From Bacillota bacterium (GTDB lineage: Bacteria > Bacillota > Dethiobacteria > DTU022): 41,676 nt of DNA. The notes beneath the pieces were generated by a model. It was given only the letters and a program-made list of their open reading frames with translations, was not told the origin of the DNA and did not search any database. This document shows positions 10,997 to 12,745 of the stretch, one piece after another (the first letter of the stretch is position 1; each line of letters begins with the position of its first letter). Where the stretch lies: the NCBI GenBank assembly GCA_018400435.1, contig JAGYMW010000009.1:1-41676 (forward strand), written 5' to 3'. The translations under genes were made by a program, and so were the position numbers.

Positions 10997-11025
10997 TTGA
11001 CTTTGATGTAAAATAATGTTATAAT
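10997..11025 (+). promoter_or_regulatory. near-consensus sigma-70 type promoter
   Basis: TTGACT (10997-11002), a 17-bp spacer and TATAAT (11020-11025). Transcription should start near 11031, at or next to the ATG at 11030 of the dockerin-like frame. The transcript would be nearly leaderless for that frame, and it would continue to the MORN-protein gene. Confidence 0.65.
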
Positions 11026-11029
11026 ATGG

Positions 11030-11242
11030 ATGTTTGAAAACACTGCCATTCGTAAAGATCTTAACGGGGACGGCATGATAGATGTAGTCGACGTAACACT
11101 CGTTTTTCAGCATACCCTGGATTTAATCAAACTGGAGTAAAGCATACAGAGACAGGCAGATTTAAACGGAAACAACCTTGTCAATGTCCTTGATACAGCC
11201 ATGCTCATGCGTTATGCCCTCGATATGAGCGAAACACTTTAA
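11030..11242 (+). pseudogene. Dockerin type I-like module, interrupted
   Basis: One frame encodes two calcium-loop repeats typical of a type I dockerin: KDLNGDGMIDVVDVTLVFQ and QADLNGNNLVNVLDTAMLMR, each followed by the helix end (TLDL, YALDM). An in-frame TAA (11138-11140) splits them in the linker, and the second repeat ends at TAA 11242. No longer upstream domain is attached: the frame opens with ATG 11030 right after a promoter. The first repeat has ideal ligands D-N-D; the second has drifted (D-N-N). Likely the decayed 3' end of a larger secreted protein, or two tiny ORFs. It lies directly upstream of the MORN gene on the same strand. Confidence 0.65.
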
Positions 11243-11330: not shown

Positions 11331-12635
11331 ATGGAGAAAAAAACCCATACTTTCAAAGACAGATCCGTTTATGAAGGAGAATGGCGGAACGGCAGGCGGC
11401 ATGGTCAGGGCACCTGGTCCAGGCCGGATGGTTGCCTCTTTACAGGTGAATGGGCTGACGATAAACCAAACGGCCTGGGAATACTAATCCTGCCGGGAGG
11501 GAAAAAATATATCGGCGAATGGAAGAATGGCCGCAGGCACGGTCTGGGCATTGAAATTCAAGCCGATGGTACGAAACTGACGGGTAGATGGTCAGAAGGA
11601 CAGTTAGTCTCCAAAACTTCACAGCCTGAAGAAAAAAAACCAGCTGAAGATACTGAGAAAGAAAAAGTACCTCTACCGCCAGAACCGGCACTGGAAGAAA
11701 CGGTTGAACCTGAAAAAGAATCCAATACAAAAGAATCGACCGAACCAAAAGCAGGAGTGGGAAGACAGGAACCGGAAGAACTTGATGAGCAAGCGGCGGT
11801 GGAAAAAGAAAAAGCCTATCCTTTACCTGGTTTGACCGAAGATGAAGAACCGGGAAAATATGAATATGGAGAACCGGAAAGTTACAAAGAAGAACTGGAA
11901 GACTATTATGATGAAACACCCGGGGAAGATGAACGCAAACCGTTCTGGAAAAAATGGTGGCTTTGGGCTATCATAATTCTTCTCGCCGTGCTGGCGGCTT
12001 TGTTGTTTTTTCTCTCTTCCCTGAACGATAATGGGAGCGCCGATCCGGACCCTGATCAGACTGAGGAACAAGGTAATACCGTGGATCCTGATCTGATCCC
12101 GGAAGAAGAGCCTACAGTTGAGGAACAGGCCGAAGGGGACAGCAAAGAAGAAGATCCTCCAACCATCGAAGCAGGAACTTATGTGGTCAATGAGGATATC
12201 GAACCGGGGCTCTACCGCTCTGAAGGAGGGATCACTTACTTTGAACGTCTCTCCGGCCTCAGCAGTGAACGAAAAGATGTAATCGCCAACGGAGCTGTTC
12301 CGAACGGGCCTGTAGTTGTGGAAGTCAAGGAATCTGATGTCGCCTTTCGAAGCGAAGGAAGCGGAACCTGGTACAGGCTTGACGATTCATATCAGCCGGA
12401 ACTTAAAAGTACGATCGACGACGGATGCTGGATTGTCGGCGTCGATATCGAGGCAGGTACTTACCGGACTGACGACGAAATCGATTATTGGGCCCGCCTG
12501 TCAAACTTCAGCCATGAAGTTGACGCGGTAATTGCCAATGACGCCATGGTGACCGGCGGAACGGCAGTGGAAATAAAAAGTTCCGATGCCGGATTCATCA
12601 GCCAGGGCCGGGCTATCTGGACCAAAGTTGATTAA
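11331..12635 (+). CDS. MORN-repeat membrane protein with duplicated C-terminal domain
   Basis: 434 residues in four parts. (1) Residues 14-93: three full 23-residue MORN repeats (YEGEWRNGRRHGQGTW, FTGEWADDKPNGLGI, YIGEWKNGRRHGLGIE) and a partial fourth. (2) About 95-203: a Glu/Pro/Lys-rich, probably disordered linker. (3) About 206-230: one transmembrane helix (WWLWAIIILLAVLAALLFFL). (4) After an acidic spacer, two tandem ~75-residue copies of a domain with pattern G-T/C-Y/W-V-x5-DIE-G-YR ... ERLS/ARLS ... VIAN ... SD-F, ending GTWYRLD and AIWTKVD. The MORN part should be cytoplasmic and the repeats outside. MORN modules bind lipids or proteins; the function here is unknown. A terminator follows. 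Confidence 0.85.
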   Translation: MEKKTHTFKDRSVYEGEWRNGRRHGQGTWSRPDGCLFTGEWADDKPNGLGILILPGGKKYIGEWKNGRRHGLGIEIQADGTKLTGRWSEGQLVSKTSQPEEKKPAEDTEKEKVPLPPEPALEETVEPEKESNTKESTEPKAGVGRQEPEELDEQAAVEKEKAYPLPGLTEDEEPGKYEYGEPESYKEELEDYYDETPGEDERKPFWKKWWLWAIIILLAVLAALLFFLSSLNDNGSADPDPDQTEEQGNTVDPDLIPEEEPTVEEQAEGDSKEEDPPTIEAGTYVVNEDIEPGLYRSEGGITYFERLSGLSSERKDVIANGAVPNGPVVVEVKESDVAFRSEGSGTWYRLDDSYQPELKSTIDDGCWIVGVDIEAGTYRTDDEIDYWARLSNFSHEVDAVIANDAMVTGGTAVEIKSSDAGFISQGRAIWTKVD

Positions 12636-12721: not shown

Positions 12722-12745
12722 CCCTCCCCGAGTGGAGGGCTTTTT
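12722..12745 (+). terminator. intrinsic terminator after the MORN gene
   Basis: CCCTCC and GGAGGG pair around a 6-nt loop (CCGAGT), followed by CTTTTTC. It is correctly placed and oriented to end the MORN-protein transcript. Confidence 0.7.

What the first reader, a model, noticed from the sequence alone, without database searches (positions are those of the whole stretch)
11331..12635. MORN - acidic linker - membrane helix - tandem repeat architecture
Seen: cytoplasmic-side MORN repeats joined through an EPK-rich linker and one membrane helix to two ~75-residue extracellular copies of a domain patterned G-T-Y-x-DIE-G-YR / RLS / VIAN / SD-F / W. The MORN part suggests membrane or protein binding inside; the paired outer domains look like a binding or sensing unit. 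I do not know a described system with this arrangement.
Basis: partly seen in the sequence, partly recalled or inferred. Interest (0 to 1): 0.6.

Follow-up and report, generated by a model that had tools for sequence, protein, structure and literature searches.

The report
MORN-tagged membrane protein with paired ectodomains
A bacterial membrane protein in which a lineage-specific inside-the-cell docking tag (MORN repeats, also seen on light receptors and transporters in its relatives) has been joined to a known type of two-copy surface domain that elsewhere is often carried by mycobacteria and by phages; an unusual recombination of known parts rather than a new kind of system.

Summary
Window 11331-12635 (+) encodes a 434-aa protein: three MORN repeats, a 112-residue acidic linker, one membrane helix with a strong positive-inside signature, a second acidic linker, and two ~75-residue copies of one domain. 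The paired domain is not unknown: it is NCBIfam NF053833 (Rv1352/Rv1906c). AlphaFold predicts it with high confidence as a small all-beta domain (pLDDT 93-95). Tandem pairs behind a membrane helix or lipobox occur in Natronobacillus, Salirhabdus, Saccharibacillus and phages. The MORN part is also not isolated: the same ~95-residue N-terminal cassette, aligned from residue 1, heads heliorhodopsins and DUF4282 proteins in the same GTDB family. MORN-heliorhodopsins, and unnamed further MORN fusions, of haloalkaliphilic Dethiobacteria were published in 2021. What appears new is this combination. I found it in 1 of 98 genomes of its class and in none of the NF053833 proteins read elsewhere. Best reading: a MORN docking cassette was fused to a ready-made Bacillota surface protein, so the pair binds something outside while MORN anchors or clusters it inside. 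An unexpected lead: in phages the domain sits in the lysogeny module, once in the slot held by the superinfection-exclusion lipoprotein gene ltp. Function is unproven.

The parts
11331..12635 (+). Whole gene, 434 aa: MORN cassette - acidic linker - membrane helix - acidic linker - two Rv1352/Rv1906c domains
11331..11606 (+). N-terminal MORN cassette (residues 1-92; three MORN motifs at residues 14-27, 37-50, 60-73 plus a degenerate end)
   Evidence: PF02493 6e-21; aligns from residue 1 with the N-termini of MORN-heliorhodopsin and MORN-DUF4282 proteins of the same family, 43-56% identity; same supported clade, 93/95
11607..11942 (+). Cytoplasmic acidic E/P/K-rich linker (residues 93-204), predicted disordered by composition
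   Evidence: Charge count; inference
11955..12014 (+). Single membrane helix (about residues 209-228), preceded by ERKPFWKK (positive-inside)
   Evidence: Hydropathy; same KKWWFW-type helix in homologues L037, L038 and L045
12015..12161 (+). Outer acidic linker (residues 229-277)
   Evidence: a similar acidic linker lies at this place in L037 and L038
12168..12377 (+). Ectodomain copy 1, NF053833
   Evidence: 60.2 bits, E 3.9e-16; AlphaFold of the pair pLDDT 92.8
12414..12629 (+). Ectodomain copy 2, NF053833
   Evidence: 64.7 bits, E 1.6e-17; AlphaFold of the single domain pLDDT 95.0, seven strands
12722..12739 (+). Terminator-like hairpin followed by CTTTTT, suggesting a single-gene transcript
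   Evidence: Consensus match only
10997..11025 (+). Sigma-70-like promoter match TTGACT-17-TATAAT about 300 bp upstream
   Evidence: Consensus match, 11 of 12; function not shown, and a dockerin remnant lies between it and the gene

Best explanation
A single-pass membrane protein (N inside, C outside) that arose when the MORN docking cassette used on several membrane proteins of this bacterial family was joined to a complete, already existing Bacillota-type surface protein (membrane helix - acidic spacer - two Rv1352/Rv1906c beta domains). Outside, the paired beta domains act as a bivalent binding unit for some envelope or environmental ligand, held off the membrane by an acidic spacer. Inside, the MORN cassette makes protein-protein contacts with itself or other MORN proteins of the cell and so anchors or clusters the surface module. 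Shown by sequence: the architecture, both domain families, the shared cassette, and MORN-free full-length counterparts of residues ~200-434. Supported but inferred: topology and origin by fusion. Inferred only: binding outside, docking by MORN inside.
For: Domain families: MORN and NF053833 twice. Residues ~200-434 align end to end with the whole proteins of Natronobacillus azotifigens (L037) and Salirhabdus euzebyi (L038), helix motif and acidic spacer included, at 43-44% identity. The N-terminal ~95 residues align from residue 1 with MORN-heliorhodopsin (PF18761, 6.6e-100) and MORN-DUF4282 proteins of the same GTDB family, and fall with them in one supported clade of 22 proteins (93/95) separate from MORN-ABC ATPases. 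Among 80 MORN proteins read, 13 carry ABC_tran, 11 heliorhodopsin, 7 DUF4282, 3 Big_2, 2 PASTA, 2 GYF_2 and 1 DUF4389, so MORN is attached to many different membrane proteins here. Only the window's genome has NF053833 among 98 genomes of the class, which fits late acquisition. MORN as a dimerising protein-protein module rather than a membrane binder: TbMORN1 study PMC7725318. Ectodomain fold confident and all-beta.
Against: No ligand, partner or expression data. The combination is known from a single metagenome-assembled genome (87% complete). The KKWWFW helix motif is, to my knowledge, common in Firmicutes, so it adds little to the fusion argument. MORN also occurs on proteins predicted to be secreted or lipid-anchored in this family (L007, L002), so MORN is not always an inside module. 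No solved structure matches the ectodomain significantly, so a binding function rests on general form and on position in relatives.
Confidence: 0.5

Rival explanations
1. Transmembrane sensor: ligand binding by the outer pair changes the state of the inner MORN cassette, which signals to partner proteins, in the way proposed for MORN-heliorhodopsins.
For: Same cassette as MORN-heliorhodopsins, for which a sensory role through MORN partners has been proposed (PMC8612252). Other MORN proteins exist in the same genome.
Against: One helix flanked on both sides by long acidic low-complexity linkers is a poor rigid transmitter. No kinase, cyclase or other output domain lies in the protein or among the neighbours tested: SSF symporter, Usp, substrate-binding ABC importer, citrate synthase. 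The heliorhodopsin model itself was not found in this genome.
Confidence: 0.2
2. Domesticated phage-type surface protein: the ectodomain pair descends from prophage superinfection-exclusion or lysogenic-conversion proteins, and the cell now uses it, tethered by MORN, to block phage DNA entry or to alter its surface.
For: The closest sequence found (L044, 55% identity to the pair) is a lipoprotein in a prophage lysogeny module: HTH repressor - ImmA/IrrE peptidase - this gene - tyrosine integrase. The prototype exclusion phage TP-J34 has int - ltp - metalloproteinase in the same relative order (PMC3952083). Mycobacterium phage Sparky has gp46 (this domain) between immunity repressor gp47 and integrase gp45, and Farewell carries a match to it in the same interval. 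L046 and L055 lie directly next to an integrase, and L052 and L056 near a regulator or antirepressor. Fold matches in viral proteins include lipoproteins of actinophages (TM 0.82).
Against: The window gene is not in a prophage. The domain is also chromosomal in bacteria, and the NCBIfam model takes its name from two M. tuberculosis genes. Gene position shows expression in lysogeny at most, not exclusion. Ltp's own domain was not compared.
Confidence: 0.17
3. Membrane tether: MORN repeats bind phospholipid of the inner membrane leaflet and the protein shapes or stiffens the envelope, as junctophilins do in animals.
For: MORN repeats were first described in junctophilins and have been reported to bind phospholipids (references cited in PMC8612252). 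Tail-anchored MORN proteins exist in the same family (L033, L068, L071, L076, L081, L104).
Against: The one careful re-test found no vesicle or membrane binding and redefined MORN as a dimerising protein-protein module (PMC7725318). The cassette is only weakly basic (+4 in 92 residues) and is tied to a linker of charge -22.
Confidence: 0.1

Closest known systems
MORN-heliorhodopsins of haloalkaliphilic Dethiobacteria (PMC8612252; PF02493 + PF18761)
   Same: Same ~95-residue N-terminal MORN cassette, aligned from residue 1 (up to 56% identity) and in the same cassette clade; fused to a membrane protein, MORN inside
   Different: No heliorhodopsin domain; a single helix and a paired ectodomain instead
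Rv1352/Rv1906c domain proteins (NCBIfam NF053833)
   Same: Both C-terminal copies score well above the family cut-off; tandem pair after a membrane helix or lipobox, as in L037-L040, L044 and L045
   Different: No MORN in any relative read; the Cys pair (CYW ... CGTW) of the mainly actinobacterial-type and phage members is absent from both window copies, as in the Bacillota members
Natronobacillus azotifigens (L037) and Salirhabdus euzebyi (L038) 243-250 aa proteins
   Same: Membrane helix - acidic spacer - tandem pair, aligned with window residues ~200-434
   Different: Lack the MORN cassette and inner linker
Ltp superinfection-exclusion lipoprotein of Streptococcus thermophilus phage TP-J34 (PMC3952083)
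   Same: A phage relative of the window ectodomain (L044) holds the same lysogeny-module position
   Different: The window gene is chromosomal and helix-anchored; homology of the two ectodomains was not tested; no activity known

Membership tests
MORN repeat proteins (PF02493) | Score above the Pfam cut-off, several repeats | tested here: met
   73.5 bits against 22.5, three repeats
NF053833 Rv1352/Rv1906c domain | Score above the NCBIfam cut-off | tested here: met
   116.8 bits against 25; two copies, 64.7 and 60.2 bits
NF053833 Rv1352/Rv1906c domain | Extracytoplasmic placement | tested here: inconclusive
   Positive-inside pattern and lipobox or helix upstream in homologues point outside; no experiment
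MORN-heliorhodopsin family | N-terminal MORN cassette of this lineage | tested here: met
MORN-heliorhodopsin family | Heliorhodopsin domain PF18761 | tested here: not met
   Not in the protein; model not found in the genome
Ltp-type superinfection exclusion proteins | Encoded in a prophage lysogeny module | tested here: not met
   Neighbours of the window gene are ordinary chromosomal genes
Ltp-type superinfection exclusion proteins | Lipid anchor | tested here: not met
   Window protein has a mid-protein membrane helix and no N-terminal lipobox
Ltp-type superinfection exclusion proteins | Blocks phage DNA entry | not testable with these tools
   Needs an infection assay
Junctophilin-like tethers | MORN block with a C-terminal tail anchor and no ectodomain | tested here: not met
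   The helix lies mid-protein and is followed by about 206 residues

The most novel reading that the evidence does not exclude
In this lineage MORN cassettes are a general cytoplasmic address tag that wires different membrane proteins (light receptor, transporter, surface binder) into one inner scaffold, and the window protein connects a phage-type exclusion ectodomain to that scaffold, giving the cell a surface detector or blocker of phage attack.
Probability: 0.1. Interest if true: 0.75.

Novelty: new variant of a known kind. Interest (0 to 1): 0.36.

Why it matters
It extends the published MORN-heliorhodopsin fusions to a surface-binding protein and shows that one N-terminal cassette clade is shared by heliorhodopsin, DUF4282 and Rv1352-type partners in one bacterial family, which makes a common inner docking partner a testable idea. 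It also points to a concrete, cheap test for the function of the uncharacterised Rv1352/Rv1906c domain: in phages it sits in lysogeny modules, in one case in the slot of the exclusion gene ltp.

Tried and rejected
The pair against PDB sequences gave nothing. The pair and the single domain against PDB folds gave no match at E <= 0.001; the top pair hits (CUB tandem, collagen-binding tandem) have TM <= 0.35, so I draw no fold-based function from them. Considered and rejected: chance repeat (shuffles); a frameshift or gene-fusion artefact (one open frame with balanced composition; cassette placed in its own family's clade, which also argues against a mis-binned contig). Foreign DNA by composition: the pair segment has 52% G+C against 47% for the window, and neighbouring genes reach 52-53%, so no clear signal. 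Neighbourhood as a clue to function: a single-gene unit between a divergent symporter gene and a Usp gene, uninformative. A search over Actinomycetota genomes was not possible because the centre must be a genome handle.

Full report
Observation. The ORF at 11331-12635 (+) encodes 434 residues. MORN repeats are certain (PF02493, 6e-21). One strongly hydrophobic segment lies at about residues 209-228, preceded by ERKPFWKKWW and followed by an acidic stretch, so the N-terminus is predicted inside and the C-terminus outside. The two C-terminal copies are far more alike than shuffles allow (159 against a best of 45 in 500).

What the outer domain is. Pfam has no model for it, but NCBIfam does: NF053833, the Rv1352/Rv1906c domain, 116.8 bits for the two copies. 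AlphaFold with 13 and 21 related sequences gives confident all-beta models of the pair (pLDDT 92.8) and of one domain (pLDDT 95.0). No solved structure matches at E <= 0.001. Among viral predicted structures, proteins of Rhodococcus phage ChewyVIII and Mycobacterium phage Aggie (annotated lipoprotein) match at E 4e-4 and 8e-4. Tandem pairs without MORN occur in Natronobacillus azotifigens, Salirhabdus euzebyi and Saccharibacillus species and in phage contigs; the domain is in 8 of 250 genomes of one Bacillota order, all of one genus, with 1-2 copies each. The whole Natronobacillus and Salirhabdus proteins, helix and acidic spacer included, align with window residues ~200-434. In the relatives read here the domain follows an N-terminal helix or a lipobox, which supports an outside location.

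What the MORN part is. The genome has 39 MORN matches on six contigs. In relatives of the same GTDB family, the best matches to the window's first ~95 residues are the first ~95 residues of heliorhodopsins (PF18761, 6.6e-100) and DUF4282 membrane proteins. In a tree of 37 short N-terminal MORN blocks, the window falls in a clade of 22 with the heliorhodopsin and DUF4282 fusions (support 93/95), apart from the MORN-ABC ATPases (99/97); its exact sister is unresolved. Of 80 MORN proteins read, partners were ABC ATPase (13), heliorhodopsin (11), DUF4282 (7), Big_2 (3), PASTA (2), GYF_2 (2) and DUF4389 (1). L093 has the same layout as the window (MORN - linker - helix - outer tail) but a different, short tail. 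MORN-heliorhodopsins restricted to haloalkaliphilic Dethiobacteria, and unspecified further MORN fusions in those genomes, are published (PMC8612252). From this I infer, but have not shown by name, that the window comes from such a bacterium.

How rare the combination is. NF053833 occurs in 1 of 98 genomes of the class, the window's own, in 4 of 399 sampled across the phylum and in 8 of 250 of a Bacillota order. No MORN was seen in any other NF053833 protein that I read. The combination therefore rests on one genome, although cassette phylogeny and composition argue against an artefact.

Mechanism. Best supported: a docking cassette was added to a ready-made surface protein, with binding outside and MORN-MORN or MORN-partner contacts inside. 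The anatomy and the two homologies are shown; fusion origin and topology are inferred; binding and docking are hypotheses. The lipid-binding idea for MORN is weakened by the TbMORN1 structures and assays (PMC7725318). A sensor role is possible but no output domain is present and the linkers look flexible.

An unexpected lead. The closest sequence to the window pair (L044, 55%) is a lipoprotein in a prophage: HTH repressor - ImmA/IrrE peptidase - lipoprotein - tyrosine integrase. TP-J34, the prototype of lipoprotein-mediated superinfection exclusion, has int - ltp - metalloproteinase at the same place (PMC3952083). Mycobacterium phage Sparky has the domain (gp46) between immunity repressor and integrase, and Farewell carries a match to it in the same interval. 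L046 and L055 lie beside integrases; L052 and L056 lie near a regulator or antirepressor. Such positions are typical of genes expressed from the prophage. That suggests, but does not show, an exclusion or surface-conversion role for the phage copies. The window copy is not in a prophage.

Verdict. Real, correctly described, and made of two known families in a combination I have not seen described. New variant of a known kind; moderate interest, mainly for the shared cassette and the phage lead.

Noticed in passing
L044:2105-4768; L123 (Mycobacterium phage Sparky gp45-gp47); L046, L052, L055, L056: Rv1352/Rv1906c-type domains recur in phage lysogeny modules next to repressor and integrase genes, once in the ltp position: candidate superinfection-exclusion or lysogenic-conversion proteins.
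   Followed up: partly
window 11054-11215 (+): Remnant of a type I dockerin domain with an in-frame TAA directly upstream of the MORN gene (PF00404); two other dockerin matches in the genome (C8, C113).
   Followed up: partly
L033, L068, L071, L076, L081, L104: Bacterial MORN proteins with a C-terminal membrane tail anchor, a junctophilin-like topology, in the same family.
   Followed up: no
L005 (own genome C47), L070, L075, L077, L086, L088, L089, L094, L100, L105, L116: ABC transporter ATPases with an N-terminal MORN block, conserved across the family as one clade (99/97); in L005 an ABC-2-like permease gene follows.
   Followed up: partly
L110, L115: Reversed order: N-terminal domain (GYF_2 found in 2 of the 80 proteins scanned, apparently these), one helix, then MORN repeats, which would place MORN outside.
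   Followed up: no
L003, L036 and similar ~510-aa proteins: Long MORN-only proteins of about 510 aa conserved in the family; in the window's genome the gene lies beside tatC.
   Followed up: no
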